DNA from: Isohypsibius dastychi | Lineage: Eukaryota > Tardigrada > Eutardigrada > Parachela > Isohypsibiidae | Direction of reading: 5' to 3' | DNA: 24,854 nucleotides | Assembly (NCBI GenBank): GCA_034696485.1 | Contig: JAQIWT010000284.1 | Location: forward strand, 1 to 24,854 | In this document: one piece after another, positions 3,455-21,262 of the stretch | How the letters are laid out: every line of letters begins with the position of its first letter | How positions within the stretch are numbered: the first letter of the stretch is position 1 | The notes under the pieces: generated by a model | What the model was told of the DNA's origin: nothing | Databases searched by the model: none | The model's input: the letters and a program-made list of their open reading frames with translations, nothing else | Made by a program: the position numbers and the translations under genes

Positions 3455-3640
3455 TTCATTCAGCGATGGAATACCACACGACTGCAGTTTTTTTTCGGTT
3501 TTCGAGATGTATTGAACTGCACTGGATGCGTGTTAAGGAGAAAAGATCCGAACGATTACTAATCAGGTGCATGGGGTCTAGTCTAATGAGTGTACCTGAT
3601 GAGGTAACCTGATTCCAATCGATTAGATCTGTTGTAGATT
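3455..3640 (+). repeat. Dispersed duplicate, copy A (pair with 19600-19785)
   Basis: The segment aligns over about 160 bp with 19600-19785 on the same strand. Shared blocks include CATTCAGCGATGGAA, GCACTGGATGCGTG / GTTGCATGCGTGCGT, AGAAAAGA..CCGAAC and GGTCTAGTCT.AT.AGTG. The frame that reads FSDG.. in both copies is broken by a stop here (…EMY*), so this copy looks like a decayed coding fragment or a non-coding repeat. Confidence 0.5.
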
Positions 3641-3780
3641 GCCAAAAGTGGCCGTTCACTGGTGATGCTTTGATGAGCAATGTTTTTTCGTGCTAAGATT
3701 ACTGTACTTACTGCTTTTGCATTACCCGAGGAGAGTCGTACATCCATCAATAATTTGCAAATAAATGCTGGCTGGAGAAA

Positions 3781-3972
3781 ATGAAAACCATGCTATTCGA
3801 GCGGATCATTTCATTCATCATATTTGCTTTTTGCACAATTTCAGCTGCGGTCATATGGAGCAAACCTGGGAATAATCAGAACTATCGAATTGAAATGCTT
3901 TATCAACGATTCGAGAACAAATGTGAACTTCTCCACAGGCACAAAGGGGAACGTTATGGCACGTTGTATTGA
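3781..3972 (+). CDS. Small ORF with signal-like N-terminus
   Basis: A 63-codon frame starts MKTMLFERIISFIIFAFCTI, then SAAVIWSKPG. The basic start, hydrophobic core and small-residue end resemble a secretion signal or an N-terminal membrane anchor. The remainder (YRIEMLYQRFENKCELLHRH) is unremarkable. It could be a short secreted protein or exon 1 of a longer gene. No downstream exon was identified and the frame may be fortuitous. Confidence 0.25.
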   Translation: MKTMLFERIISFIIFAFCTISAAVIWSKPGNNQNYRIEMLYQRFENKCELLHRHKGERYGTLY

Positions 3973-4200
3973 CATGTAAAGCAAAGTTCGCAATTGTACG
4001 GTTTTCAAACATGTGAAAAACTGTTTTTTAGAACTTCAGCATTCCCCAGATTCCCTGACAATACTTCATAGCCTGCTGACTATAGCCTGCAGATTACGAG
4101 ATCTTTGCGAAGGAGAACAATCGGAATATTTTGGATGTGGATCGACGCATACAATCTAAAGTTATTGATTATATTAGCTGGGAACATTGAAATAAGCGGT

Positions 4201-4365
4201 GGGTTTGATACGTGAGGGTCTAGTGGTCAAGAGCTCCCAGGTCATTCCAGTTGATCGTTCCAACTCTCCACTCCCTCTCGTGATTCGAACCTGTGCTCTT
4301 TTCCATTCCGAAACCAAATCGTAACATCTCTTCATTTGCTCCTGATTGCTTCCGCACTTCTTGAA
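4201..4365 (-). pseudogene. Decayed Ig-like exon, inverted copy 1
   Basis: The minus strand here aligns with the plus strand of 5445-5609 over about 160 bp, with one 1-nt indel near the start. In the corresponding frame it reads SGANEE, FGFGMEKSTGSNHERE and RVGTINWNDLGALDH, then a stop. The other copy reads SGASSR, FGVRLEKGTDSEHKKE and RVEKISWNDSGALYH. The 'I.WNDSGALYH' block is the F-strand signature of an Ig-like domain (usually D.G.Y.C), but the cysteine is lost in both copies. An alternative is a tRNA-derived SINE: the plus strand carries TCTAGTGGTCAAGAG (A-box-like) and GATTCGAACC (B-box-like) about 50 bp apart. I favour a coding origin because the peptide alignment is collinear. Confidence 0.45.
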
Positions 4366-4587
4366 TCTATCATTCACTTCGCTGCATTATACCCAGCCCA
4401 AAAAACCCCAAAAAAACAGTCTCATGGAGCGAAAACTTGAAGCGAAAAATTAAATTTACATTGATATGAATTTCGAAACAGGATTTTGAACTAGAGATTG
4501 CTCGGTGATAAGATCAGAGTGTCTCGTCGGAAAAGCATGTGTGGCTTGACTTGTACACGGACCGAAAAAACAGCCACGCTTTTTCCA

Positions 4588-5125
4588 TGTATTTGTATTT
4601 TCTGTACTCTCTGTATTTCCCCGTAGTTCCTGTAGTTCCTGTATTTCCATGTGTTTTCTGTATTTCCTGTATTTCCTGTATTCAATACAAGAAATACAGG
4701 AAATACAGGAAATACAAGAAATACAGGAAATACAGGAAGTACAGGAACTACAGAAAATACAATAAATATAGGAAATACATGGAGATACAAGAAATACAGG
4801 AAATACAAGAAATACAGGAAATACAGAAAATACGGTAAATACAGGAAATACAGAAAATACAATAAATATAGGAAATACATGGAAATACAAGAAATACAGG
4901 AAATACAGGAAATACAGGAAATTCAGAAAATACGGTAAATACAGGAAATACAGAAAATACAAGAAATACAGGAAATACGGAAAATACAGGAAATACAGAA
5001 ACTAAACTGAAATTCGCTAAATACAACGAATACATGAATTCAGTTCTTGCAAAAAATTGCAAGGTAATATATCCGGAATACACGGGTCATACAAGGAAAT
5101 ACAGGGATATACGGCGAATACAAGA
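4588..5125. repeat. Fold-back minisatellite of 9-bp units
   Basis: The array is built of GGAAATACA-type 9-mers (variants AGAAATACA, AGAAAATAC, GGTAAATAC). From about 4588 to 4682 the units run as the complement (TGTATTTCC), and from 4684 onward as GAAATACAG. The switch is at TGTATTCAATACA (4678-4690), so the region is one long inverted repeat able to form a hairpin. Within the right arm a block of about 80 bp recurs at an offset of 100 bp (AATAAATATAGGAAATACAT at 4761 and 4861; AGAAAATACGGTAAATACAG at 4825 and 4925). The period is a multiple of three, so most frames stay open and mimic Tyr/Phe/Cys- or Lys/Tyr-rich proteins. I do not regard these as genes. Confidence 0.9.
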
Positions 5126-5444
5126 ATACAGATTTAAAAACGGACCGTATGTAACCGTTGCGTGTACAAAGTCAGCCATATCTAGGAAAAGAGCTGGACA
5201 ATAACAGACATGAAAACCAGCATATCGATTTATCAAGGAGATTCGGTGCAGCAACCGAAAACAATAACGTGACAGTAAATTCCAAAGTTTTTTAAGGAAA
5301 CCACGCATTTGTGGTATCACAGTCGAAACTGTATGTTGATGGGGTTCCGTCCCTCATCACCACTGACTTCACTCGATATATTCTAAACTGGTCCAGAAAT
5401 TGAACAACCGCGGTTCAGAATAATCCAAAGAATAGAATACCAGA
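5126..5444. other. Intergenic, no gene seen
   Basis: A minus-strand frame at 5087-5320 has no recognisable domain and begins inside the degenerate edge of the fold-back array. Nothing else is identified. Confidence 0.4.
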
Positions 5445-5609
5445 ATCAAGAAAAACGAATGCAAATCAGGAGCAAGTAGTAGGAAGTCATGCTTTGGTGT
5501 TAGACTTGAGAAGGGCACAGATTCGGAACACAAGAAAGAATGTAGGGTTGAAAAGATCAGCTGGAATGACTCGGGAGCTCTTTACCACTGGGTTCCACTG
5601 ATCTAACCC
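5445..5609 (+). pseudogene. Decayed Ig-like exon, inverted copy 2
   Basis: This is the plus-strand partner of the segment at 4201-4365. The frame runs SGASSR, CFGVRLEKGTDSEHKKEC and RVEKISWNDSGALYHWVPLI to a TAA. The Ig-like core is better preserved than in the partner (DSGALYH), but a tryptophan stands where the disulfide cysteine would be expected. No donor site follows the domain. The two copies are about 1.1 kb apart and flank the fold-back minisatellite. Confidence 0.45.
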
Positions 5610-5943
5610 ATCATTTGTTTCAACGTTCCGAGCTATTGTAGACATTGCAGTTCGCTAGGGAACCCTGATTTGCTATCCGGACAGTCACAAAAAATCGCAA
5701 TTTTGCTGACTGACTAGACAGGACCAGCCGCGCGATTTAAGCTGATTCAGTCCGGTTTTTCAGAAGTGGCATGGTTTGTACAAGGCTTGTGATCTGTTAC
5801 CAGTGAATTAATACGTACCAAGGGTAACATAACGTTCGGTTTATTATGGATGCATCAATGTAGCTATAGCTTTATTTCTATATTTATATTCCTATCAGTC
5901 TGTGAGTCGGAAAACAAGTTGTTTCGGGATATCAAGGCACATC
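5610..5943. other. Left flank of the large element
   Basis: No gene is seen. Isolated words of the neighbouring array type occur (CTGTTACCAGTG at 5796, AAGGGTAACATAACG at 5820). The sequence then becomes AT-rich up to the first full repeat at 5944. If the element at 5944-14012 is a transposon, its insertion point lies in or just right of this stretch. Confidence 0.4.
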
Positions 5944-6806
5944 ACATCGGTCACAGAGGTCACACAGGTCACACAGGTAACACAAGTCATAAGGTAACGT
6001 CGGTCACAGCGGTAACACCGGCATTGCCGAACACAGGGGTAACAAATTGACAGCAGTCACAAGGTAACACCGGTCACAGGGGTAACACCGGCATTGCCGA
6101 ACACAGGGGTAACAAATTGACAGCAGTCACAAGGTAACACCGGTCACAGCGGTAACACCGGCATTGCCGAACACAGGGGTAACAAATTGACAGCAGTCAC
6201 AAGGTAACACCGGTCACAGGGGTAACACTGGTCACATAGGTAACACTGGACTACAGGTAACAGCGGTCACAGGTTACGTCGGTCACAGGGGTAACACCGG
6301 TATCGCCGAACGCAGAGGTAACAAATTGACAGCAGTCACAAGGTAACACTGGTCACAGGGGTAACACTGGTCACAGGGGTAACACTGGTCACAGAGGTAA
6401 CACTGGACTACAGGTAACACAAGTCATAAGGTAACGTCGGTCACAGCGGTAACACCGGCATTGCCGAACACAGAGGTAACAAATTGACAGCAGTCACAAG
6501 GTAAGACTGGTGTCACCGATCGCAGAGACGATAAGGTGCCTATGGTCACAAGGTAACACTGTTCATAGAGGTAACACCAGTCACAGAGGTAACACGAGTC
6601 ACAAGGTATCGCCGGTCACAAGCTTACGCCGGTCACAGAGGTAACACTGGTAACGCTGGTCACAAAGAACACCAGTCCCAAGGTACCACCGGTCACAGAG
6701 GTAACCTCGGTCACAGACGTAACACTGGCCCCAGAGGTCAGATCGGTCACACCAGTCACCAGTCAGTTTACAGAGGGAATACCAGTCCTATCGGTAACAT
6801 GGGTAA
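5944..6806 (+). repeat. Left minisatellite array (18-bp unit), inverted relative to the right array
   Basis: The tandem unit is GGTCACAGAGGTAACACT, two related 9-mers (GGTCACAGA and GGTAACACT), with many variants. A 70-bp higher-order unit containing GGCATTGCCGAACACAG, AACAAATTGACAGCAGTCAC and AAGGTAACACCGGTCACAG starts at about 6021, 6091 and 6161. It recurs at 6301 (two periods later) and about 6448. The array decays toward 6700-6806 and stops about 100 bp before the 3' end of the transposase gene. Reading read inward from the left end, the unit has the same sequence as the right array read inward from its own end. Confidence 0.9.
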
Positions 6807-6906
6807 TTGGGCACACTAGAAATACAGAGGAAATCTGAGAGAACTTGCAAAAAAGTTCATATAAACCTCTAAATTGGAGCAAATCCTCCTCTTCTTTTCC
6901 GAACGA

Positions 6907-9174
6907 TCAGTCGCTGCGCTCATTGAACGCTCTACGCCCTGGTCCCACTATTTTCGCTCCCTTCTGAATGCAAGAAGTGATGTAGCTGTTGCGCATCTTT
7001 ACAATTCGGTGGATTAAAAATATCTGGTGGTCTTTGGGCATGGAATTGAGCTGTTTTTTGTACTTTACCAGCCAGCTAAAGGTCTGCTCAGCCGTCATTG
7101 TATTCTGCTTGCAGTCGTCTCCAAATTTCGTTTTGAACTTGTCCGGCCCATACAGCTGCTTGCATTCCGGGTTCTTATGATTCGCAATATGTAGACCATC
7201 GATAATCTTCGATATTTTGCCCCACATACTGTTGTATGGAGCAGGCAGTGGTAAGGGATCTTTTGTTGCAAGGAGCCTGTCTAACTGACACATGTTGTCA
7301 TACGCGAGAAATAGCTCACTCCATTTTGATTCGTCAACATCCTGTAAGCGCTGATACATCCAGGTGACGAGGATGAGAAACACTTGTCCGAGGCTTTCAG
7401 CTCTGAGCGAGAACAGCGTTAACAGGTATTTACGAATACATAAGCTGTGAAATCAAATACCGGTATATTGACGCGAACGCGTCAATGAGGCCACTGCCAC
7501 GCACCACAAAAACGTAGCCCCGGCTGTAAGAATAACCACGCTCGCCTTCGCCTTTGTTTTTGCGACACATCTCGTTAGGATCAAACTTTGGGCAGGAAGA
7601 ACCTTTTTTGTCCGAAGGTGAACCACGAAGAATTGAATCCACTTCTTCCACCGATATGTCGCCGAGCTTTTTCATCCCTAAAATAGTTGGTCGGCAACAG
7701 ACAACGCAAATGTTAGGAGCGTCTGCCTCGCTGGCTACCTTGGACAAGAAGCTCGGTCATTTCTTCGTTGATGGCCTCATGAGGACCCTCTCTCTTCCCA
7801 GATCCTTGATGGAGCACGCAGTATGGTGAATTACCATGAACAGCACGTGGGCAGACAGCTGGATAGTTGACTAGTGGAATTCCTTTAATTTTATTCTGCA
7901 AACCAATTATGATGAAAATTGGGATTACCACGCCTGATATAGAGACTGATTCTGAATTACCGTTACTGCTGCAGCGCAGTGACGAAAACCAATTTTCCAC
8001 ATTCCATCAACCACGGCCAACTTATCGCATCCCAGAGTTTGCATTCTGACTCACAAACATGGTTGTAAATCGTTGAGAAGATTTCTTTCTGAATAAATGG
8101 CAGGCATTGTTCTAGACTTGAACCCGTTCGGAATTTGAAGTCTGATTGGTTCCGCTCTCTCAGGTCAGCCTCCAACTGCGACTTGAAGAATAAATCAGAA
8201 ACAATTTTTCTGCTGAATCCTGTGAGTGGTCACATCACCAATCGAACACCAAATCAATAACAGCTTGACTTACGATTCGGCCAATTATGAGTGTTGCACA
8301 TTAGTTCAGCAAATCCTTCAAAAGTACACTGCGCAAACAGACTGCAAAATTGAACTTGTCAAGCCGCTGATGCGGATCCGAAAGAAATTGACTGGCCATA
8401 ATGGTAGCATGCAAACTAAGAAAATAAGAGCAGAAGTGTGCACCTTACTCACATCGAATTCTGCAGCAGATCAGCGAGCTTACGCGTAATGAAAACCACT
8501 TGAGTGACCTGAACCAGGTCTCTTTGCAGCAAATAAAAACTGTATTCATTCCGCTTTGGATCCGACCAAGTAGAGTACCCATATCGTTTCTCACATTCTG
8601 AATCGACGCAACGTAGAACGATGTGGTCAGCGCGTTTAAATTCTCCAGTGTGGGAGAAGACGAAAACCTGCGAAACGTTCAGTTGAATATGGATAGGCTG
8701 GAGAGAAATCACGCAGACTTCAGTGGGTCCCCTGTGCCAAGACAGTGGACGCAGTTGACCACGATTTCTTCCCTCTCTGTATCGACATTGATTAAGACAA
8801 TATTCCAGGGGTGTTGTGAGCAACCCATGTTGAGCTGACGGAGCTTGGTCCAGTCGTCCAAGATAAGTAGGTGATCCAGTTAGCAAGTCCTGCATCAGTT
8901 GTTGGACAACCGTTTCGGATAAGCCGGAATAAAGCTGAATGAACTTCAAAAACAAATCTGCAGACAGGGTAACTAAAACGATATCAAAACGAACCTCCAG
9001 CCGTTTCTCTTCAGGTATATTTTGGGGAACCATCAGATATCCGGTGCGCATTCTTTCTATGCTTCGAAAGCCATAACGATCCGAGATCCAAGCAAACGAC
9101 AGTCTTTCATCACCTGCCAGTTCTGAGAGTGGGCGCGTTCGGAAATCAGGAACATATAGCTTATGGTCGTTCAT
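6907..9174 (-). CDS. KDZ-superfamily transposase with cysteine-cluster N-terminus (one frameshift)
   Basis: Predicted cut-and-paste DNA transposase. Exons on the minus strand: 9174-8453, 8341-8274, 8219-7961, 7895-7739, 7677-7461, 7402-6907; all introns are GT-AG, 54-111 bp, with matching phases. The product is 639 codons. N-terminal Cys cluster: C126/C130, then VFVFSHTGEFKRADHIVLRC and C194, as in the CxC5/CxC6-type clusters linked to KDZ transposases. Next is a zinc-like segment (CESEC, GCDK, then VVDGMWKIGFRHC). The RNase H-fold catalytic residues are probably D335 (VVDG), D510 (AYDNMCQLDRL) and E580 (TMTAEQTFSW). LHIANHKNPEC (545-555) and the MPKDHQIFLIHRIVKMRN tail are also family-typical. 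One base is missing near 8030 (codon 325), so the copy may be dead or contain a sequencing error. Start: ATG 9174; an AG acceptor at 9203 leaves open an extra 5' exon. Family assignment is from motif recognition. Confidence 0.82.
8018..8050 (-). other. Frameshift within transposase exon 3
   Basis: Upstream the frame gives YNHVCESECK. Downstream the family-like continuation LGCDKLAVVDGMWKI lies in another frame. The downstream frame has a TGA just before the join, so no alternative reading avoids the break, and no GT-AG intron fits the few bases between. Restoring exactly one base makes exon 3 end in phase 0, matching exon 4. It therefore looks like a single-base deletion or sequencing error, not a hidden intron. 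Confidence 0.65.
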
Positions 9175-9514
9175 TCTGTATTTGGTCAAACGGTAACGCT
9201 GAGAAACGAAAACGGAACAAATGGTTGAGAAAGTGCTGTTTTTCACTATGTGCGACACAAACTGACAGACAGAAAGCTTCTGTTTTCCTTATCTTGTTGG
9301 CAGCGGCTTCAGTTCTTTGAAGTTAGCTTCTACCGTCTCTCGACGTAGATAAGAGAAAGAGTGATGTTCTCCCACTCTCTCCGAATCACGAACACGTAAC
9401 GCATTCCGATGGTAAACAGAAACTGAATTTCTCAATCGTTCTTTTGTTCTGACTTGTGTGGGGAAGACTGTGTTCTTATTCCATCTTTAACGATCATATT
9501 TCATCTGAGGTATT
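9175..9514. promoter_or_regulatory. Shared divergent promoter region
   Basis: Only 340 bp separate the start codons of the leftward transposase and the rightward ATPase/PHD gene, so regulatory sequences for both must lie here or inside the genes. No canonical TATA box was found. Short pyrimidine/purine tracts (CTCTCTCCGAATC, AGATAAGAGAAAGAG) occur. A possible small 5' exon of the transposase, ATG near 9400 on the minus strand, was considered but its phase does not match. Confidence 0.45.
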
Positions 9515-12500
9515 ATGGATGATACAGATTTATCCGTTACCGAATCTCAGGTGAGACGGCTAGTCAAGTCTACATTTAGATGCAATTTGCAAGGAGTGCC
9601 ATTCTAGACAGGAACAGTTTTTCGCTATGTCGAGGCAGATTGCGTTACCTACCGAAAACGACATGACAGCAGCGAACCTGACAAGCGGAATTATGTTTTC
9701 AACTTTATCTTGAGCTTAAAAGCGCAGGTGAAAGGTGACGATGACGAGGAGGGAGGTCACGTAGTGGAACTGCACTTTGACGACGGCAAATAGTGAGAAA
9801 AAATCTTGATCTAATGAAACCTTATCAACACATGTTTTCTTTCGACTAGTATTTCTTTCGTGCCAGCAACAGCTTGGAAAAGCGTCGAAAGGTTTTTCGA
9901 CGTGCTGCATAAAAATTCAAGCGGGTTACCTGCCATATTCAAAAAGATCACCAGTTACGACTTGAACGACTACGGTTTCGACAAAACCCAGGCATTCAAG
10001 ATGTAAGAGCTGGATATCACGCGTGTGAACGATGTTTTCTGATTAGCCATTTTCAGCAATTTTGGAGGTTACGATTATCTGAAGAAACGGGTGGTCAAAC
10101 TGGGAATTCAGCCGGATGAGAAGACGTTCATTATTGGCTCTGATGCAGTGTTCGAAATCGGTGAAAAGGTGGTCAAGAGACTGAATCTTGGAGAAACGGA
10201 GTACATCTGGATTCCGGGGAAATTACCTTCACTCCATGTCCCAGACCAGCCCGCAGCGAATGGTCTGAATCCTATCGAAATTATGGCCGACATTCTTCCT
10301 GAGTCAACACTCCTACGCTTTGCATTAACGATCGGTGAGTCGTTCCAAAAATGTTGCCACTCGAGTTTTGGATTTGCGTAATTTGCAAAAAGTTGGCGTG
10401 CAAGAATTTTTCAAAGAACAGTAGCGGTTGGTACGAGGTAGTGTACGCAACTGGAGTGCAACCCAATGGTCAACTACTCAGAACGTTAATTTGGCCTGTG
10501 TTCAATCTGAAATGATATGAAGTAATATGATCTGTGAAATTTTTATTTTCAAATCACAGATCACATTTTTCCGTGAATCTGAGACCTAGTCTGACACAGG
10601 TGCCATCACGATGGGACTCCATTACAAGTGCGTGACAGAGCACTTCAGTCGCTGTCCTACAGTTGTGTGTGTTGGAGAAACCAATACTGGGAAGACACTC
10701 TGCAGCAGTGCCAGTATGAGCCTCATTGCGAGCGAAGCCTCAAGCAAGTTGGAGTACAAATCCATCTCCGTGGCAGCTCTGCGAAACGTGGTATTCAGTC
10801 GACAAAATTTGCCAATCCTTCTTCATGACCCCAGTTCTGCGGAAGTTATGAAAATCCTCGTTGAAGAGAGCTATGAGGGCAAAGCCGTAGCCAACTGTCG
10901 CGAGAGCGTGGTTCCGGGATCCTCAGGGATCGTCACATGCAATGCTGACTTCTTAGCACAGTTCAGAAGCCTCAATACGTGCGTATATCGTCAGTACCTT
11001 CGTTCAGCTTCGCATCGAATTTATTCTGTCTCCAGAATGCGCGGGATGTCACGATGTGTCATCATCCCATTTACCGAGGAAATTGTTGACTTCACAGCTC
11101 GGCGTGGGTTGGACTTCAAGCGGGCCAAGTCAGAGTTTGCCATCTACTTACCAAAGCTTCTTCGGTTTGGAAGTGAAGATATATCATTAATATCTGAAAC
11201 GATCGACAAAGTTGCGCCTTTGATCAAGAGAGAGCTTGAGCGATATGGTTTCCCTGAGTCGGGGTCCCGAATCTCGTTCAACATAGCTCTGTTGTACGCT
11301 TTCGCAATCAAGGTATTCAAACTAGTTGTTATCGAAAAATAGTTAAGAGTTGACGCTAGACAGTCAACCAATAGACGGTTGTTCCATTTTCTAGATCCCC
11401 GCAATACGAGAATCATGACTTTTCAAGCATTGTTCATTGCAGGGTATCAAGTCTCTCTCTTTTTCGGTGGTCAAAGAACTTGCTCTCCTTGACTTCGTCG
11501 TCAAGGAACTGAGTAAGAGCGCGGTGACATGGCAAACGCCCACAGATGCGCCAAAACGAGCAGCTCCGATCCCCTCAGTTCCTCTATCTCCGTCCAAACG
11601 GCAGAAAGTCAAGTCATTGGACGATATCTTGGAGTGGATCTTGACAGAGCTGAACGGGCGACCAGCTCTGGTATGTGTGGTCGAACCAAGGAACTATTTT
11701 TTCTGAGATCCCTATCAACGAATCCGATTTTATAGATATCTAAAGTTTTCGCAATCACAAAGAAAGTGGATGGAAGTGCAGTGTTGTCGATCCGTGATGG
11801 CGATATTCATCAGGTTTTGGAAGTTGGTGAAGTTCATCCGATGATGTCGCAGTTCCGCACAGCAGTGAAATCTGTTCACGGGTATATGATGAACCAAACG
11901 ACCCGAGCTCCAGGCTTCGGCGAGAAAACAGTCAAAGCAATTCAGGTGCCATTATGCAGTGTCTCCAGCTCAGTTATCGATGCAGTGAAAGCAGCTGAAA
12001 AGGCTACTGTGGGAATCAAAACGGCTGTTTGCGTTGAGCTCGAACACAAGTCAGTTGAGGAAACTCCTAACATTGCCGTTCAGACCGATAAGGTCGTTTC
12101 CTTGGAAGAGCATGATAACCAGGCCGACAATGAGCCAAGTGGATCAAATATAAAAAGATTTGATTCACCAGCTCCGTTTGGCGAAGCCCTTGAATCCACA
12201 ACGTCTGCGCTTTCTGGTGAAAGAACTCGTCCTGCAGGTAATAAAATTGCTCAAGCCAGAACCCAGAAAATTCCAATAATCATCGCCAAATCTAGACGAG
12301 CAGGCCCCTACGAAACGGAAGAATGGAGATGTTGAAGAATCTGATGACATTCCAGCAAAATTACCCAGGCCACGTGGAAGATGCACCAGTCGTCCATCAA
12401 TGGCTGACAAAGCGAGATTCGCGCCTGATGTGGAGCAGTCTGCACAAGTGATTCACTCTAGGAGAACTAAGCTCCATGCTTTCTTAATTACATATGTCGT

Positions 12501-12733
12501 TATAGAAAATGTGCTCAGTTTGCAAGGCTGTGGTAAAACATGGACTCATTTTTGCGAATTGCGCTCGGTGTACAGGGAATTTCCATCCGAAATGCATTGG
12601 AATGACCATCCCAAAGGTCAAAGCATTTAGCAAAAGTTCTTGGAACTGCATGTCCTGCGATGCCGGTGACAAAAAGAATGGAACTGAAGAGCGACGAAAG
12701 TCAGAGGATAAAGCGTCGAAAGCTTCTGACTGA
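9515..12733 (+). CDS. P-loop ATPase (SF3/AAA-like) with C-terminal PHD finger
   Basis: Ten exons: 9515-9550, 9608-9792, 9850-10002, 10057-10334, 10600-10978, 11036-11312, 11443-11670, 11736-12237, 12296-12447, 12506-12733. Every junction is GT-AG, all phases agree, and an unbroken 805-aa product results. Residues 1-217 form an unrecognised N-terminal domain. An ATPase core follows: Walker A GETNTGKT (243-250), Walker B-like ILLHD (D294), a B'-like SYEGKAVANCRESVVPG, and sensor/motif C GIVTCN (N332), then MSRCVIIPF. This order resembles SF3 helicases or related AAA ATPases. Residues about 440-730 are low-complexity, basic and acidic linker. The end is a PHD zinc finger: C733, C736, C749, C752, H757, C760, W776, C778, C781, then a basic tail. 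It probably binds chromatin and acts with the neighbouring transposase, perhaps as a targeting or replication/transposition accessory protein; that role is inference. A capture of a host gene is also possible. Confidence 0.82.
10528..10563 (+). repeat. Inverted repeat in ATPase-gene intron 4
   Basis: TGATCTGTGA (10528-10537) and TCACAGATCA (10554-10563) form a perfect 10-bp stem with a 16-nt AT-rich loop, near the acceptor of the only long intron (265 bp) of the gene. It could be incidental. Confidence 0.5.
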
Positions 12734-12883
12734 AGAGGTCTGACAGCGGACAGGTAAACAACCACGTTATTCCGAGGTTCTCTAAGAAAACGTTTGATTA
12801 TGGGCCGGACAGCATTTTGTGAGTTCTGTAATAACTTTGATAAATCCTTGAGTGTTATTCTTGCGATGAAGATCGATCGCAAC

Positions 12884-12889
12884 AATAAA
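12884..12889 (+). terminator. Poly(A) signal of the ATPase/PHD gene
   Basis: AATAAA lies about 150 nt after the TGA stop of the ATPase/PHD gene on the same strand and is the first canonical hexamer after the stop. Placement is typical of a eukaryotic 3' UTR. Confidence 0.45.
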
Positions 12890-13396
12890 CCCCAGGTTAT
12901 TATCTAGTTCCGGGTTGAAACGCATGAACTGAAAATATTCGGTTCAAGCTTGAACTGTAACCTTTCTGAAAAGCACATGATTTTTCCCCACTCCGGACTA
13001 TCATCTATTTCACTTGCAAAACCAGTTCGACGAACAACGAGTTTTGGATTCTTTTCTGCAAGAGAGCAGTGGCATCCGTATACAAGACTGTTCGGCCCAA
13101 TCAGCACACTGCTGATTTGCTATTTGTTTGAACGAGAACCTCGTTTAGGTTGAATTTTATCTCTGTGGCGCTGTCAGAGTTCTGTTCCATGATGCGGCAC
13201 TTTCACTGGGAATCTGATACAAAATGAGGACACTCTAAAAACGTTTCTTGTTAGACTATGTTCGTGTTTTGGTTGTTTGCAAGATCGAAACCTTTGTGAA
13301 AGACATGTACAACTCTCTTATTTTCAGAGAATATCGCTCTCAAGAATATGATAATTAACAATCACGGCACAGTTTGCATAATCGAAAGCTCACCTT
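12890..13396. other. Spacer between ATPase gene and right array
   Basis: AT-rich, with no supported exon. Overlapping open frames at 12904-13153 on both strands lack domains and splice support. This is the right-hand counterpart of the 100-bp spacer between the transposase gene and the left array. Confidence 0.4.
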
Positions 13397-14056
13397 AGCC
13401 CTAGTGTTACCGTGTGACTGGAGTTATTTCTGCAACCTGAGTGGTGTGACCGGTGTTACCTCTGTGACCAGTGTTGCTTCTGTGACCAGTGTTGCTTCTG
13501 TGAGCAGTGTGACTAGTTACCTCTGTGACCAGTGTTGCTTCTGTGACCAGTGTTACTTCTGTGACCAGTGTTACTTCTGTGACCAGTGTTACTTCTGTGA
13601 CCAGTGCTACCTCTGTGACCAGTGTTACTTCTGTGACCAGTGCTACCTCTGTGACCAGTGTTACTTCTGTGACCAGTGCTACCTCTCTGACCGGTGTTAC
13701 CTCTGTGACCAGTGTCACTTCTGTGACCAGTGTTGCTTCTGTGAGCAGTGTTACTTCTGTGACCAGTGTTACCTCTGTGACTGGTGTGACTAGTGTTACC
13801 TCTGTGACTGGTGTGACTAGTGTTACCTCTGTGACTGGTGTGACCAGTGTTACCTCTGTGACCAGTGTCACTTCTGTGACCAGTGTTACTTCTGTGACCA
13901 CTGTTACTTCTGTGACCAGTGGTAGCTCTCTGACTGGTGTTACCTCTCTGGCTGGAGTTACTCTGGTGTCCAGTGTTACCCTTGTAATCCATGTTTCCGT
14001 TGTGACCGATGTTATCTCTGCAGATCAATATCTCTGTGTCCGTGTCATTTCTGTTC
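13397..14056 (-). repeat. Right minisatellite array (18-bp unit), inverted relative to the left array
   Basis: The plus strand reads TGTGACCAGTGTTACCTC (or TTC) in tandem. The minus strand therefore reads GGTCACAGAAGTAACACT, the left-array unit with one change. A 27-bp subrepeat containing GTGACTGGTGTGACTAGTG occurs three times (about 13777-13857). The array is more uniform than the left one between 13510 and 13900 and degenerates at both ends. Because the period is a multiple of three, several long frames (poly Thr-Ser-Val, Cys-Asp-Gln and the like) stay open; I regard none as genes. Confidence 0.9.
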
Positions 14057-16402
14057 CATGAGAAAATCGTTACGACCATGGTTAACAAATCGTTACTTTT
14101 TTCTCGCAGTTACGTTGGTAACAGCAGTCACAAGTTTTGTACCGATCGTGCCATATCTATACAAATTTGCACGCGTGTGGTTCTACCAACACACATGAAT
14201 TATACATACTGTGGTAACTATGATAACTTTGACAATGCATTGGATCCTGCACTCCCCTCTCTGAATCCATCCCAAAACCATGCCATCAAAAAGCCTGAGT
14301 GAGACAGTAAAGAAAAATCAAATGTACCAGCTGAAGAGTCTGAACTCTGCACAGATTTTCTTTACAGAAATTTTTCTCAGATTTTATCATCAGACATCTG
14401 CTGTGTCCACCCATTTCAGTCGCGAATATTCATGAACAATGAACTCCAAAAACAGGTTGACGTTCGTTCGAGTGCTGAAGGACAGTTCAGAATTCAGCTC
14501 CGGTCCAGCTAACCGGGCTGCTTCTCACTCCGGTCTTGAATCCAGGCAAACAATATCCCTCTTGCAGTACCATGAAGTTTCAAATCACACAAGGTCAGAT
14601 TCTATTAATTGTTCAGTTAATGTAAACCACCGAATATCACTGATCATGTTCTTGTGCCCGTTTGATCTAACAACGACGCAGTTTTATGTATCTTTCCAGA
14701 TTCGAGTTTCCAGGAAACGAAAGGGAGAACGAATGACAGGATTTTGAATTTCGATGAAAAAAGCATTCAAGAATGAGATGAGAGAGACAAATGATTAAAG
14801 CCACAACAAACTGCACGGACATAATTAGCCATGAAATATCTTAAGACTGCGGGGTCCGGTTGGTAAACAGATGGGGTTGCGGTCTTGATTTACCGAATCA
14901 AGACTTCCTCCCTCCAACTAATCGGTGGGACGGAGTAACATCCTCATGCGAATCCTCCTCACCGGGGATCCGCAATATTTGAACACTAACTTCGGAGCAT
15001 TCGCTCCTGATCGCACAGAGCTGAAGCTGGTGTGGATCCGAATAGCATGATCCAAGATTAGCAAAATGACAGGTGAATTCAGTGAAATACGAGGGGTGTT
15101 AGTTAGAACTTTCATTTCATTATTCTTGAAACTCCGTCGAATTATAGGCTGAGCTTCCGCTGGAAGATATTTTCGATTGGGATCGACAGATGTATGGAGC
15201 TTGCATCTTCCTTGAAAACTTCCATGCCTCTATCAGCTGAAGTTGCTATCAATGTACGGGGAGTCAAAACCACAGAATGCAGAACCACCTGGCGAGCGAG
15301 TGAACTGGAGAGACTTGTCTACATGGAATATGATATTGAAAATCCACCAATGCTTACCCTAATCTGCGATTCGCTCGTAGATGATATTCAGTACATCACC
15401 GTTGCTATTCTTTCGTATAGTCAATTAGTTTCGTAAGCCCATGATGATGTGAATGCGATGCATGGAATAAGTTATATGACTCAAGAAAGATCGCCCAAGA
15501 AACCAACACATTTAGGGTTGTCCAGAGTTTTCGTCAACGACGAATTTAAGCTGGTTGACAGATGAAACTGTACCGGATACCGGAACCAGGAACCTTGTTC
15601 AAATTTCACAGCACTTCAGGTTTGCAAAGTTCAGACTACTGTACAGCTACGTATGACCGACTGACGCATAATTTGTTTTGATGCAATCAAGATGACCCGT
15701 CATTACTAACTGTCATCCCAAAGAAAACAAGTCGCTAAATCGGACAGACCATGGACCGTAGATGACTGTATATCCACAAAATGCATCGAACCCATGGATT
15801 TCAATTCTCTTCAAGGACCTGCCTTCCATTTGAGAGACCGGTGCTAGCCCATCTAATAACGCGATCAATTTTTTTTTCCAATGCGTCGCTTATGTGTTAA
15901 TCTCTATTTCCCACTCTGCATTCGTGGAAGCAGCTCATCGCATGCACACCAGGCTGTCTTTGTTTTACCCTTTTCAGAGTCGGGGAGGGGGGGGGGGGTG
16001 GCGATGTAGGAAAGTTAACCCGGCTGAATTCGGAACATCAACTAGCACTTGCTGTGACCTTTCACTTCTTTCGAAAACGAAAAAATTGTGGTATCTACCA
16101 ATCTACTGGAATTTGTCCCAAAAATGCTGATGTGAGCAAATCATCATTTGTGTGTTACGAAGGGACCTTTCAGAGACATGCTTTCGGCATCAAGTTCTCG
16201 TGATCTGCTCCGGTATCCCTTTTTTCTGAGGCCGTCTAAAGTGGAACCAACTCAAAGGTTTGGCGTTGAATACCCAGCTGTTTTTCTCGTATGTTGCACA
16301 ATATTATGTTGATATGCTACATCCGGAGACACATATATGATGCGGAGAAAAGGTTATCGAAAGAATGTGGTGCTGAGTAAATATCAATGATCGCATTTGT
16401 GC
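14057..16402. other. Long stretch without recognised genes
   Basis: Several open frames (14439-14747, 15194-15436 plus; 14918-15115 minus) show no domain I can name and no coherent splicing. At 14117 a fragment GTAACAGCAGTCACAAG matches the left-array higher-order unit in direct orientation. At 14882-14904 there is a hairpin (GTCTTGATT, 5-nt loop, AATCAAGAC). At 15987-15998 there is a run of 12 G. The right part is downstream (3') of the first Ig-domain gene. Confidence 0.4.
14882..14904. repeat. Perfect 9-bp hairpin
   Basis: GTCTTGATT and AATCAAGAC surround TACCG. No gene or U-tract is adjacent, so the role is unknown. Confidence 0.5.
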
Positions 16403-18925
16403 TCAAAAAGTTTGCAGGGGAGGGCAATCTGTCTCGGGTTCCAGAGTGACCCATACATAAGCGGAACCGACTGCATTTGTGATAACGCACGCATAGGTCG
16501 AGGTAAAGTCTTCATAGTAACTTCTGGCACCAAGATAGGATGTGAAGGTGAATGGCTTCGATCCGTGTTTAATCGCATGTGTCAAGCCAAACACCACCGT
16601 TTGGCCGATCGTAGAATTTGTGAATGGCCAACTCGATTCGAAGATCATGAGAGTGTCCGTCTGAACTTGTAAGCGTTCTGTATTCCGTGCTTGAAAATCG
16701 TGCCGAATGTTGGGTTCTTGATATGTGAGTAAATTCGTCCACTTGACCTGTAATCCAGTGATGGAGGACTGGAAGGAACAGGGAAGCTGGAACGAATTAA
16801 ACGGGCAGATCTTTTTCACAATTTGTTTCTGCTTCACTTCGGGTGCGACTGAAAAAAAACGGACTTCAGGTTGACTTGAATTTTTGGTGGCCCACGAGCG
16901 CTAAGTTCTGGGATTATCTTATATCAAAGCCTAGTGTGACCCAATATTACTACCAGTCTACTTGACTGGCGGGTTCTTTCGAAGATCCAAAAAATGCGGC
17001 TACAGATGTTGAGGTTTAAAAAAACAGTTTTCAAAATGTTGACCACCGAAAAAAAGATCGCGAAAAACTTTTCAGGATCTTCTTGATTTTCGCATCGGAA
17101 TGGCTCTTGTATGCCCTTTCCACAGAAATCCATCGAAATTCGTCAGAATGAGAGGCTCATAAAGACCACTTACGTTTGGTTAAAGGGAAAACAAAATTGA
17201 AAATGACATAGATGGGCCAGTTCACGGGAATTTTTCTCTTTCTGTTTCATCAGCTTCGATTGTGGATAAGATTACACGCAGGACTCCAATCACTCCAAGT
17301 TGCCCCAACCTAATATCTTTATTTCCTTTTCTACAGTAAGAAAACTTTTTAACATTTGAGTTCATGGGAAGTGTGGCTTGAAGGTTCGAATTACTGGGGA
17401 GTCTGGCTAATCGACCAATGGGGTAACCTCTTTAAAACTATTTTAAAAGTCAGTTTTCTGGTCCAGTATATAAACACCAGTGCTAGATCGCCCTCCTAGC
17501 GGGGGGGGGGGGGGGGCGGACAAATACACACGGGGACAACTTCATGTAAGGCCTGATCTTAGATCAGACCAGGAGCATATATACCGCAAGGTGGCTGTGT
17601 TCTTTACATCAACACATGAGTGACTTACAGTGAACATTCACGTTGATTTCTACGGCATTGCGGTTTGCCTTGGTTAATCTGAACAGCTGACCGTTCCATG
17701 GAAGGTCAAACTGTGCATTGGAACTTGAACAAATGTAAACACCACTGTCATTCCTATTGACAATCCCCAAACTGAATGCCACCTGATTCGTGTCATGCAG
17801 GTGCAGCGAGACGTTGTTGCCATTTGGATCTGTGCATCCAAACTCTGCCAGACTGAAGGGCGGGATCACGCCTAAAATAACAAGTCCCTCTCTGCCTTCC
17901 AGGAAATTGACTTCGTTGATGTTCGGCGAAGGCATCACAACAGGAGAGCTCAACCGGTTAACATAAAACAGAACGGTGTCTGAACGCGTTGTACCGCATA
18001 CACAAGAATAATTCCCAGTGTCATTCATGGATAAAGTGAGTGGGCCGTTATTGACATCTCTCCTCATCCGATGCCAGTTCGGGATATCCTTCCATTTGTA
18101 TCCAACAGTATGTTCAGGAATTCGAAACTTCATATGCGTTGAGCCGGTTCCTGTGATGACAGGATCTTCGTAGCAGACTTCTGATCCCCGAAAGAAACAA
18201 TCGAAAAATATAATGTCCTTGAGGTAAACCGTCATGCGAGTAAAAGATCTTTTCTGGTCTCGTGTCGTCAGAGATAGTATGATATCAGGTCCCCCTGACA
18301 AATTGCAGATTATGCATCTCGAGTCAGAGACCATGCAAGGAACTGCCGAAAGATGCATACTCACTCTTGACCATAAGGGGCTGCGGTAAGGAAGTGAATA
18401 TTCGTGTTCCGTTGTCAAAAGTAGCTGCGCAGTAGTGAGCAGTGCCGTTCCATGATTCACTTGCGATGAACTCCCTGGTTAGACCTCTCAAGTTACCATC
18501 TCGCCAGGTATCAATTCTGAGATGCCGATCCGCTGTCTGAGCGCCGCCGTTCACATAGTGATCATACCACTCGACACGTGGATTTGACGATTCAGCGTCC
18601 GATGAAGTGTAAACGCATTCTATTATAACTGGTTTGAGTTCCTCAATTTGATCGGCAGCGGGAAATATCGAAATTGATGGATTTTGCTGTGGTGGAGAGA
18701 CATGGTATCTAGAAAACACAAATTTTGATAACGTAAGTTGACTGATTTCGTGAACAGGATCGAGTGGAACTGGAAACGTGTTCGAAAAACGTGTTTCATT
18801 AATTAAATTTACCCACTGTCACTAGTTGTCACTTACTTTTCTGAACCACCATTAACTGCCATTGATCCAAGCACCATCATCCCGGCAGTTGAGTACAGCA
18901 GCCTTACACCCAGAAACGTGATCAT
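16403..18925 (-). CDS. Secreted protein with four Ig-like domains, paralogue 1
   Basis: Exons on the minus strand: 18925-18837 (89 nt), 18708-18365 (344), 18294-17629 (666), 16848-16403 (446); GT-AG introns of 128, 70 and 780 bp; 514 aa. Exon 1 encodes a signal peptide (MITFLGVRLLYSTAGMMVLG). Exon 2 is one Ig-like domain (IIECVYTSS, VEWYDHY, NGTAHYCAATFDNGT). Exon 3 holds two more: the first has YKWKDIPNW and NDTGNYSCVCG, the second FGCTDPNG and NRNDSGVYICSSS. Exon 4 is a fourth (LPCSFQSS, LQVKWTN, STYACVITNAVGSAYVWVTL) and stops soon after. Several N-glycosylation sites (NGT, NDT, NDS) are present. No transmembrane helix is visible, so it is probably secreted; adhesion or immune recognition is typical of the superfamily but unproven here. 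The exon lengths match paralogue 2 exactly. Confidence 0.85.
17501..17516. repeat. Run of 16 G in intron 3 of paralogue 1
   Basis: An uninterrupted G16 tract lies in the longest intron (780 bp) of the first Ig-domain gene. A TATATAAA word on the plus strand at 17467-17474 lies just before it but no plus-strand gene follows. The tract is prone to slippage, and its exact length is unreliable in sequence data. Confidence 0.6.
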
Positions 18926-19189
18926 TGTGATTATCCTTCCCAGATGCCGAGCTTGATTTTGCTCACCTACGACTGAAGAGCGTTGATGTTGCACGACCGA
19001 AGTAAAGACTTCGTACTCTTCAACGCTTGGATAGATATAGTACTGGCAGTATTCGAACGCACAGCTGGCCGCCAAGCTGATGGGCTGTTTCGTGGCAACT
19101 TTCCACTTGCTCAGATTGCTCGAATCGATGATCAGTCATGAAGTGGCCAAGCTGAAGGTAAGTTTGAGAATCCAGAAAATCAAGACTCG

Positions 19190-19434
19190 ATGTCTAAACG
19201 GCTTTCATCGCAAGTGACTGGTCTCAAAGAAACTGCGGTCAGTGTGCATTGCAGTCCAACTCTTGATCTGGTAAGTCTTCTGAAGCAGATAAGTTTCTAG
19301 TATGACGTCATGTGGACATCAGCTGACCAGAGAGAATACGAGCTGATGTGCTGCAGCGATTGTTTCTTAAATCAAGTGATGCTGATATACAGATGTGTTT
19401 CATGGTCCAATGGCAGCATGCCCGTTAAAGCAAG
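19190..19434 (+). CDS. Possible two-exon start of a small gene
   Basis: An ATG at 19190 opens 27 codons (MSKRLSSQVTGLKETAVSVH…) that end exactly at a CTG|GTAAGT donor (19270/19271). A phase-compatible acceptor at 19330 (GCTGACCAG) leads into REYELMCCSDCFLNQVMLIY, which runs to a GCAAG|GTACGG donor near 19434. No domain is recognised. The frames are short, and splice sites chosen by eye can be coincidental. The region is also the 5' flank of Ig paralogue 1 on the other strand. Confidence 0.22.
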
Positions 19435-19599
19435 GTACGGTCATAGTCGAAAAATAAAATACTGTATGAAAAATTTCATTCGAATGGTCCAGCAGCTGGT
19501 TATAATTCCATCACTGACTGCGAACATTGTGGCTCTGAAGTCTCTTATATAGCAAAGAAGCTTGATTACTGTAATGAAAAGAAGATCCGGGTGAAGTAT

Positions 19600-19785
19600 T
19601 TCCGTATTTTCGTTCCATTCAGCGATGGAACAACAAACGCAACGCCGCCATTTCTGTCGGGTTTTCTTCAGCCAAGTTCGATTGCGTTGCATGCGTGCGT
19701 TAATAAGAAAAGAGCCGAACATGACCAATTAAGTAAATGGTGTCTAGTCTGATAAGTGATACTTGATACCTGTTCAATCACCTAA
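19600..19785 (+). repeat. Dispersed duplicate, copy B (pair with 3455-3640)
   Basis: This is the better-preserved copy of the pair described at 3455-3640. It is open in one frame (VKYFRIFVPFSDGTTNATPP … LHACVNKKRAEHDQ) up to TGA. It could be an exon or the remains of one. The two copies are 16 kb apart in the same orientation, flanking the large element and the first Ig gene. Confidence 0.45.
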
Positions 19786-20010
19786 AGAGTGGAATAACAA
19801 AAAACAGATCAAAAGATGCTGTGTTACTACCGCTTGTCATTTTTTAATTCATTGTTTGTTGATACAAAACTCAGTGGATCACAATTTATTCCAGCCCGCG
19901 GAATATGTGAACAACAATCAACATTTGACCAACGAGTGCCAACGCAAAATTTGATCATGATCTTCTTGAAAATCTCTCCAATGCGAGCTGCATTCTCTTG
20001 ATGAATTATT

Positions 20011-20175
20011 ATGGCCAAGAGCGATCCAGCCGAGAAGCTGTTTTCTCTTCATACTCCGGCGGATATAAACGCTGCAAACCAGGGTTACATCCGAGAGCTG
20101 GAAAAGAACAACCTGCAACACAAACAAACTGACAATCGTGCACTGAAGAGGGTTTCAAACAATTTCGACAGCTAG
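20011..20175 (+). CDS. 54-codon small ORF or last exon, unknown function
   Basis: The frame starts MAKSDPAEKLFSLHTPADIN and ends ALKRVSNNFDS followed by TAG. The middle (GYIRELEKNNLQHKQTD) is charged and helix-forming. Composition and lack of low complexity make it look protein-coding, and it could be the final exon of a small gene that begins near 19190. No family is recognised. It would also be consistent with a decayed fragment. Confidence 0.33.
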   Translation: MAKSDPAEKLFSLHTPADINAANQGYIRELEKNNLQHKQTDNRALKRVSNNFDS

Positions 20176-21262
20176 GTCGGGTGTGATAGGTAAAATAAAC
20201 ATGAATGATAAGAACCAATTTTCGACGAAATGTTGCGGATGTTTTTTGTCACCGCCCCAGGGATGTGGTCTTACAATACCTTCAAGTTTTTCCGGACGTT
20301 TTCCTTCACGCAAGTTACCCATTTTTCAACCCCATTTCTTTGTTCACCGGGTCAACGAACCGACTTTCTATAAATCTGGTTCAATGGAGAGAGGTTCCGA
20401 ATACCATGAAGTCACGGGTGAGAATGTAGTCACCCCGGAAATAACGTTAGAAAATGTAAAAAGATCAAGTACATATTCATTTGGAAACCTCCTAGGCTTT
20501 CAGGGGATTTTCCTTCGCGCAAAGTAACCTTTCTGTGGAAGCTTTCTCTGATCAGAGTCGATGAAGCGACTCTTCTGAAGTGTTGGTCAAGGGACCGGGG
20601 TTATGAAAGTGATCTGAAACTCTGAAAGTCATTTCACCGTTTTCCTCGAAGGAAAAAAGGGTGGACGGTATGCCCCCCGCAAAACGTTCTCGAACAGCTT
20701 TTCCGGGAATATTTGTTGGTGACTCTGCAGGGTTGACTGAATACAAATTTTGAATTCAAGGTTTGAAAGTTTTAGTCCGTTGAGCATCACAGTTGTTTCA
20801 AGCGGAATCGTTCAAATTATAGTTCATACGGTAATTATGAGTTTAGCAGTGTGTTAACAACAACGAAACCTAATCATAAAGAAAATTATCATCCTATATA
20901 AAAGGCGGTTACATAACAGTCGAGTTCAAGAGAAGTCACCGGAGAATCAAGCGTGGTGATTTCCACACATCAAAATTTTGGCTGAAAATAATTTAAATAT
21001 TCTTGTTGTCACGAAGACCGTGAATTATCCGGAGATCGAACCAATTTCGACAGAACAAATGATATCTTCGGTGACGAAGAGATCGTTCGTTGAACACTGA
21101 AATGTAGATCAATAATTTCGACTCACTGGAAAGAGAAAGCTCTCTCAAAAAACGGGGTTAGGCTGAGCCCGACGTACGGAAGCCTTGGCTCTTGAGATTT
21201 CAGTTCGAAAAAGGGTTCTCAAATATGCAATGCTGACTGAAGATCAGTGATTTCATTCGCAC
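20176..21262. other. Region between the two Ig paralogues, no gene recognised
   Basis: Open frames at 20183-20527 (plus) and 20552-20746 (minus) lack domains or splice support. A strong plus-strand TATA-type word is at 20895-20905. This is 3' of Ig paralogue 2 (minus strand), whose transcript would end here. No LTR or reverse transcriptase fragment could be shown. Confidence 0.4.
20895..20905 (+). promoter_or_regulatory. TATA-box-like element without assigned gene
   Basis: TATATAAAAGG is a near-ideal RNA polymerase II TATA box. A transcript would start around 20925 and run antisense into Ig paralogue 2. No plus-strand exon was found immediately downstream, so it may drive a non-coding transcript, belong to a repeat, or be chance. 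Confidence 0.25.

What the first reader, a model, noticed from the sequence alone, without database searches (positions are those of the whole stretch)
5944..14012. Two-gene KDZ transposon: transposase and ATPase-PHD protein head to head
A KDZ transposase gene and an intact 10-exon P-loop ATPase/PHD gene diverge from a 340-bp spacer and are jointly enclosed by inverted copies of one repeat array. KDZ elements are known to carry partner genes in fungi (for example TET/JBP genes). I am not aware of an ATPase-PHD partner. If it recurs, this would be a transposon with its own chromatin-reading ATPase, analogous in logic to elements that use an ATPase for target choice.
Basis: partly seen in the sequence, partly recalled or inferred. 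Interest (0 to 1): 0.9.

Follow-up and report, generated by a model that had tools for sequence, protein, structure and literature searches.

The report
Two-gene KDZ jumping gene with ATPase
This is a real animal jumping gene that carries, besides its cutting enzyme, a second gene for an ATP-driven protein with a possible histone-reading finger; the two genes have travelled and diverged together, which gives a concrete system for asking how such elements choose where to land.

Summary
Window 5761-14159 is a KDZ-superfamily DNA transposon. A transposase gene (6907-9174, minus) and an open 10-exon gene for an 805-residue P-loop ATPase with a C-terminal PHD finger (9515-12733, plus) diverge from a 340-bp spacer. 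Of 14 transposase and 13 ATPase contigs found in the same genome, 7 carry both, all 7 head to head. The proteins co-diverged (Mantel r 0.96; 4 of 5040 permutations as high, the true order included). The true ends lie outside the arrays: imperfect 42-44-bp TIRs with unlike tips. Eight-bp target duplications appear in related short elements (of 11 tip pairs: 3 perfect, 2 at 7/8, 1 at 6/8, 1 at 5/8, 4 none), not in the window copy. In 8 of 8 ends checked the array is a one-way tandem of a motif that the TIR holds in reverse. Relatives of both proteins occur in the tardigrade Hypsibius exemplaris. The window transposase has one frame break. The ATPase is SF3/AAA+-like by motifs only; its fold stayed unresolved. 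Target choice and chromatin reading are inference. I found no paper on this partner, in an incomplete library. New variant of a known kind.

The parts
5761..14159 (.). whole transposon, 8399 bp
   Evidence: ends by alignment with C669 (90% and 92% DNA identity) and C962; TIR pattern, 9 genomic hits against 0 in the control, 5 of the 9 being the copies it was made from
5761..5802 (+). left TIR, CAGAAG-type tip, transposase side
14116..14159 (-). right TIR, TAGATA-type tip, ATPase side
   Evidence: three copies end at the same base or within one
5944..6799 (+). left subterminal array of GGTMACAnn units, one-way (55 sense, 0 antisense cores)
13403..14054 (-). right subterminal array, same unit inverted (45 sense, 0 antisense cores read inward)
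6907..9174 (-). KDZ transposase gene, about 8-9 exons, CxC5 zinc cluster and motifs VVDGMW / AYDNMCQ / TAEQTFSW
8025..8040 (-). single frame break just upstream of the first catalytic motif
   Evidence: alignment to the C1347 relative
9175..9514 (.). 340-bp spacer between the divergent start codons
9515..12733 (+). ATPase-PHD gene, 10 exons, 805 aa, open
   Evidence: intron positions compared with C790 and C1347
10600..10978 (+). exon 5: Walker A GETNTGKT, Walker B-like LPILLHDP, TCN motif
12512..12658 (+). PHD finger, C4HC3 (regex from first to last Cys)
   Evidence: Pfam PF00628 E 4.5e-4, under cut-off; regex
5625..5759 (.). left flank: end of another dispersed repeat (15 further matches, 10 of them ending at 5758-5759)

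Best explanation
A Zisupton-like KDZ cut-and-paste transposon encodes two partner proteins from one divergent promoter region. Shown: the two genes sit head to head in 7 copies, co-diverged and share gene structure; the ends are TIRs, with 8-bp target duplications in related short elements; one-way subterminal arrays repeat a motif that the TIR holds in reverse, and unit and TIR change together between families. Inferred: the transposase binds the motif in TIR and array, the array loading many molecules; the ATPase, SF3/AAA+-like by motifs, forms an ATP-dependent oligomer on DNA that assembles the paired ends or delivers them to the target; the PHD finger docks it on histone H3 tails, so the element brings its own target selector.
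For: Recurrence: 7 of 14 transposase contigs and 7 of 13 ATPase contigs, 7 of 7 divergent. Agreeing trees, Mantel r 0.96. ATPase codon positions 1/2/3 differ by 0.465/0.340/0.691 between window and C790, which fits purifying selection. PHD regex over 16 contig stretches hit only downstream of an ATPase: in full at C284, C1347, C790, C121, C597, half at C611. Antisense core in the first 70 bases of 8 of 8 ends, against 1-3% of 2429 other 70-base pieces. TSDs. Both proteins in Hypsibius.
Against: About half of the loci lack the partner, at six of them with kilobases of contig on the partner side (ATPase without transposase: C319, C597, C493; transposase without ATPase: C906, C784, C98); these carry stops, frame breaks or altered P-loops. 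No PHD pattern at C1401, C319, C151, C493 or the truncated C218. Only 1 of 4 near transposases reaches the KDZ profile at E 0.1. Nothing but motifs supports SF3: profile hits not significant, AlphaFold2 pLDDT 41 and 45. The PHD finger shows no obvious aromatic cage (my reading). P-loops are altered in C597, C493 and C151. The array cores were chosen after seeing the sequences.
Confidence: 0.6

Rival explanations
1. The ATPase-PHD gene is a passenger that helps the element in the host, for example by opening or un-silencing chromatin, as TET/JBP genes are thought to do in fungal transposons, and takes no part in the transposition reaction.
For: KDZ and several other transposon lineages of fungi carry TET/JBP dioxygenases, read as an escape from silencing (PMC12730594, abstract and passages). 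A PHD finger suits a chromatin role.
Against: That paper reports independent gains of TET/JBP genes (passage); here one ATPase lineage tracks the transposase across deep divergence, as a core gene would.
Confidence: 0.25
2. The ATPase is a replication helicase: the element uses an SF3-like helicase to copy itself or to replicate as an episome.
For: Motif pattern NTGK[ST], hhhHD, hhTCN, LSR. Three 'Replication protein E1' chains are among the four PDB hits of one profile, E 1 to 1.3, behind LSm3 at E 0.51; not significant.
Against: 8-bp TSDs and TIRs fit cut-and-paste; I saw no nuclease or polymerase gene between the ends, though I did not search for one specially.
Confidence: 0.12
3. Two unrelated genes are neighbours by chance or by segmental duplication.
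For: The 7 pairs could in part be old duplicates of one ancestral pair.
Against: With 14 and 13 contigs out of 1648, about 0.11 shared contigs are expected (plain arithmetic), 7 seen. DNA matches between the window and C1347, C790, C218 stay inside the element (pieces of 60 bases or more). ATPase identity is 39-56% within the near group and 14-28% to the rest; element ends are found near several pairs.
Confidence: 0.02

Closest known systems
Zisupton / KDZ superfamily DNA transposons
   Same: KDZ and CxC5 domains, D-D-E motifs, multi-exon gene, TIRs, 8-bp TSD
   Different: divergent ATPase-PHD partner gene; unlike tips CAGAAG/TAGATA; one-way arrays of a TIR motif
TET/JBP-bearing KDZ transposons of fungi
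   Same: a KDZ element that carries a second gene with a likely chromatin link
   Different: other enzyme; the partner here is old and co-diverging rather than gained repeatedly
Tn7 TnsC, Mu MuB, IS21 IstB (recalled)
   Same: logic: transposase plus separate ATPase
   Different: bacterial; no sequence relation shown; target role here untested
En/Spm subterminal TNPA sites (recalled)
   Same: many short motif copies near both ends
   Different: here the array is one-way, inverted to a copy in the TIR, and 0.6-0.9 kb long in the window
Harbinger/Nuwa with Myb/SANT partner
   Same: two-protein eukaryotic DNA transposon (PMC12730594 passage)
   Different: partner is a DNA-binding Myb protein, not an ATPase

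Membership tests
KDZ superfamily | KDZ transposase domain (PF18758) | tested here: met
   weak in the window copy: E 4.9e-4, 20.3 bits, under the 26.6 cut-off, and 1 of 4 near members matched at E 0.1; the sponge relative P0002, found with the profile of these 4 at E 1.4e-55, scores 32.7 bits, over the cut-off
KDZ superfamily | CxC cysteine cluster next to KDZ (PF18718) | tested here: met
   4 of 4 members, best E 6.2e-10; window copy 25.7 bits, just under 26.9; Hypsibius relative 38.9 bits
KDZ superfamily | conserved D, D, E residues | tested here: met
   VVDGMW, AYDNMCQ, AEQTFS in 4 of 4 near copies; that these are the catalytic motifs is recalled
Zisupton branch | 8-bp TSD | tested here: met
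   met in relatives with the same tips: of 11 tip pairs 3 at 8/8, 2 at 7/8, 1 at 6/8, 1 at 5/8, 4 at 3/8 or less, the window and C669 among the last; 8 bp for Zisupton from PMC12730594, where a Dileera family too has 8 and Kyakuja 7
Zisupton branch | position in a KDZ tree with named Zisupton, Kyakuja, Dileera | not tested
   reference sequences not at hand
SF3 / AAA+ ATPase | profile or fold match | tested here: inconclusive
   no Pfam match over a cut-off (best E 0.01, P0004), no significant PHROG or PDB match; models pLDDT 41 and 45
SF3 / AAA+ ATPase | Walker A, B and Asn motif C | tested here: inconclusive
   GxxxTGK[ST], LPhhhHD, hhTCN seen by eye in near copies; altered in C597, C493, C151
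PHD finger | C4HC3 zinc ligands | tested here: met
   full pattern at C284, C1347, C790, C121, C597, half at C611; none at 5 further ATPase loci in the scanned stretches, C218, C1401, C319, C151, C493, of which C218 is truncated and C493 ends with its contig; Pfam E 4.5e-4, 20.6 against cut-off 24
ATPase target selector (TnsC/MuB-like) | ATP-dependent target choice with transposase | not testable with these tools
   needs biochemistry

The most novel reading that the evidence does not exclude
An animal cut-and-paste transposon lineage has its own chromatin-reading ATPase that loads on histone-marked DNA and hands the target to a KDZ transposase, a eukaryotic counterpart of TnsC/MuB that arose separately; the one-way arrays are loading platforms that co-evolve with it.
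Probability: 0.3. Interest if true: 0.9.

Novelty: new variant of a known kind. Interest (0 to 1): 0.7.

Why it matters
Eukaryotic DNA transposons are mostly thought of as one-protein machines whose target choice is loose. A partner ATPase with a PHD finger, kept in step with the transposase over deep divergence, makes target choice or complex assembly by a dedicated second protein directly testable in an animal element. The arrays give a natural record of how a transposase and its binding sites change together.

Tried and rejected
Array ends as element ends: rejected, the TIRs lie outside. Single-copy host gene: rejected. The first search for ATPase relatives with the single sequence found nothing; the profile found Hypsibius and one unnamed fragment. 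The KDZ Pfam family searched in the own genome and in 14 control genomes rang nowhere, so that answer was empty. Fold: two AlphaFold2 jobs, pLDDT 41.3 and 44.6, not usable; Foldseek on the second gave no hit at E <= 0.001. Viral contigs with the transposase profile: no relative; with the ATPase profile the tool found no usable stretch. TIR pattern of 21 positions with up to 3 mismatches: 164 hits against 170 in the control, so only low-mismatch rows mean anything, and the list was cut; the short elements were picked from that list. Empty site with joined window flanks: none; it showed that the left flank is a dispersed repeat. No copy of TACAAATT (7 of 8 or better) at window 3600-4400. A search for TIR plus TSD around the neighbouring arrays gave nothing. 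Inverted arrays at both ends: contig ends prevented a test in C790 and C1347; C218 scored 24 against a shuffle maximum of 23, C1401, C611 and C151 did not exceed shuffles. Sigma-70-type promoter scan of the spacer: nothing, and not suited to an animal. Literature searches: (68 papers hold a KDZ name, 30 listed; 232; KDZ, transposase, ATPase, PHD finger: 0; 3; 6; 83; Zisupton and helicase: 11; 1; 5), 119 (Zisupton and PHD finger: 0); of these I read passages of PMC12730594, PMC9297572, PMC11071193 and PMC8226300 only, the rest as listings. Iyer 2014 and Bohne 2012 are not held, so their content is recalled only.
Full report
WHERE. The window is contig C284 of an unnamed 30.4-Mb assembly of 1648 contigs. 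The named relatives found for both proteins are from the tardigrade Hypsibius exemplaris (transposase P0001, E 2.0e-65, 49% identity over 19% of the query; ATPase P0003, E 5.2e-48, 33% over 44%); a sponge, Dysidea avara, has the transposase (P0002), and an unnamed fragment the ATPase (P0004) (in one search the candidates were capped). The host may be a tardigrade; this is inference only. Whether the two Hypsibius genes are neighbours could not be seen: their longest contigs differ in length.

THE TWO GENES. On the plus strand 9515-12733 carries ten exons joined by GT-AG introns without a stop or frameshift, 805 residues. It has a Walker A motif GETNTGKT and a C-terminal C4HC3 PHD finger (Pfam E 4.5e-4, 20.6 bits against a cut-off of 24). 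On the minus strand 9174-6907 is a multi-exon transposase with a CxC5 cysteine cluster and a weak KDZ match (of 4 near copies 4 match CxC5 and 1 matches KDZ at E 0.1), and invariant motifs VVDGMW, AYDNMCQ and AEQTFS. The window transposase has one frame break, immediately before the first of these motifs; exon borders around 8330-8450 are not resolved in the window or in the three near copies. The starts are 340 bp apart.

RECURRENCE. Searches of the same genome gave transposase matches on 14 contigs and ATPase matches on 13, some of them weak (C436 E 3.5e-7; C456 E 1.6e-5; C151 ATPase E 4.9e-5); the tool calls such counts lower bounds. Seven contigs carry both: C284, C1347, C790, C218, C1401, C611, C151. 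In 7 of 7 the genes diverge, with about 20 bp to 2.8 kb between the nearest matches. By simple arithmetic about 0.11 shared contigs would be expected. The other 7 transposase contigs: C669 looks like a deletion derivative that keeps both ends; C1279 begins 0.5 kb from a contig start and C561 lies about 2 kb from a contig end on the side where the partner would be; C436 was not examined; C906, C784 and C98 show no ATPase match and carry stops and frame breaks. The other 6 ATPase contigs: C121 and C400 begin within about 0.6 kb of the contig start; C456 is a fragment not examined; C319, C597 and C493 have 8 kb or more read on the partner side without a transposase match and carry stops, breaks or altered P-loops.

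ONE INHERITED UNIT. Trees of the two proteins agree: (C284,(C790,(C218,C1347))) in both (support 0.82-0.98), C151 near that group, and C1401 and C611 in a second group with the Hypsibius proteins. Over the 7 pairs the identity matrices correlate at r 0.96, reached by 4 of 5040 permutations, the true order included; the C218 ATPase is only its first 220 residues, and the result owes much to the deep split. Five intron positions of the ATPase gene agree in codon and phase between window, C790 and C1347 (74, 218, 344, 437, 731); three more lie within a few residues; one at 13 is shared by window, C790 and C218. Codon positions 1/2/3 differ by 0.465/0.340/0.691 between window and C790, the third being near saturation. 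The PHD regex, run over the 16 contig stretches then held (about 175 kb), hit only downstream of an ATPase: in full at C284, C1347, C790, C121, C597 and by half at C611; it found none at C1401, C319, C151, C493 and the truncated C218. C790 reads without a stop over 780 residues; C1347 has one stop in a badly aligned stretch.

ENDS. C669 matches the window at 5760-5965 (90%), 6014-8027 (87%) and 14088-14159 (92%), and C962 matches the right end to within a base. The ends form an imperfect TIR of 42-44 bp with unlike tips, CAGAAG and TAGATA. A 30-base TIR pattern (up to 3 mismatches) has 9 hits, 0 in the control; 5 of the 9 are the copies it was made from, the others C329, C403, C654, C793. Short elements with the same pair of tips exist. 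Of 11 tip pairs examined (7 fetched as flanks plus C329, C793, window, C669), 8-bp duplications are perfect in 3 (C651, C323, C329), 7/8 in 2 (C312, C266), 6/8 in 1 (C793), 5/8 in 1 (C218 at 22076), and absent in 4 (C917, C22, window, C669). The window's left flank is the end of another repeat with 15 further matches, 10 of which stop at window 5758-5759; this may explain the missing duplication. Which side bears which tip is not constant: of six copies with a readable end, window, C218, C790 and C121 agree, C1347 and C906 do not.

ARRAYS. The arrays of the window are 9/18-bp tandem units facing inward. Other copies have arrays with other units: GTTCAC in C790 and C218, GTCCAC in C1347, further units in C611, C1401, C121, C906. 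I checked 8 ends of 6 elements, those with a clear array and a known end. The core runs one way in the array (55:0, 45:0, 43:0, 17:0, 18:0 over two cores, 37:0, 13:1, 37:0), and the first 70 bases of all 8 ends hold at least one copy in the opposite direction; 3 of the 8 hold a sense copy as well. Antisense cores occur in 1-3% of 2429 other 70-base pieces. The cores were picked after seeing the sequences. I read the arrays as amplified transposase sites that drift together with the TIR. The non-autonomous C329 is hardly more than two such facing arrays between two tips.

THE ATPASE. No Pfam, PHROG or PDB match is significant (best Pfam E 0.01, under its cut-off). The order of motifs, NTGK[ST], hhhHD, hhTCN and LSR followed by hydrophobics, is that of SF3 helicases as I recall them; three E1 chains appear at E 1 to 1.3, behind LSm3 at 0.51, which is not evidence by itself. 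Structure models failed. So the enzyme class is a lead.

HOW IT MAY WORK. Shown: two genes, one unit, TIR, TSD in relatives, array rule. Inferred: divergent joint expression from the spacer; transposase on TIR and array; ATPase as assembly or target factor; PHD finger as docking module. I give 0.95 to the two-gene unit and about 0.5-0.6 to a role of the ATPase in the transposition reaction itself.

KNOWN OR NEW. KDZ elements and TET/JBP passengers are known (PMC12730594, abstract and passages read; the main text holds no 'ATPase', 'PHD' or 'P-loop'). Zisupton in Pristionchus is described with TIRs and no detected TSD, and the text holds no 'ATPase', 'KDZ' or 'PHD' (PMC9297572, passages). A tardigrade repeat paper lists Zisupton among superfamilies in the one passage that matched (PMC11071193). 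A Chlamydomonas paper reports Zisupton and Kyakuja (PMC8226300, passages). No paper in the library holds KDZ, transposase, ATPase and PHD finger together, nor Zisupton and PHD finger. Repbase entries and subscription papers could not be read, so an earlier description cannot be excluded.

I recounted against the calls and corrected: left-flank start, intron comparison, identity ranges, the E1 statement, the weak KDZ match, the missing PHD patterns and sense copies in three ends; I added one control.

Noticed in passing
window 4114-5759: Left neighbour: a repeat with long inverted arms (4114-4390 and about 5420-5707); its end at 5625-5759 has 15 other matches in the genome.
   Followed up: partly
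window 4594-4998: Another tandem array of 9-mers (AATACAGGA) with an inverted partner stretch, nested in the repeat above; a weak KDZ-like tip (4 mismatches) lies at 5184.
   Followed up: partly
C669 5384 to about 7688 (L057): A different element with 47-bp identical inverted ends and inverted 9-mer arrays (GAGCATACC) is nested in the deletion derivative, so inverted arrays are not confined to KDZ elements here.
   Followed up: partly
C793 9897-9949 (L065): A 53-bp minimal element consisting of little more than the two tips, with a 6/8 target duplication.
   Followed up: yes
C329 6556-7752 (L066): A non-autonomous element made almost wholly of two facing 18-bp arrays, perfect 8-bp duplication GAAACAAC.
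   Followed up: yes
C962 (L062): Inverted 14-mer arrays (GGGGACAATTCGGA) lie directly beside a leftover right end of the window family.
   Followed up: no
window 16403-23271: Similar open stretches on the minus strand that read like multi-Ig-domain proteins, probably tandem duplicates (by eye; no domain search).
   Followed up: no
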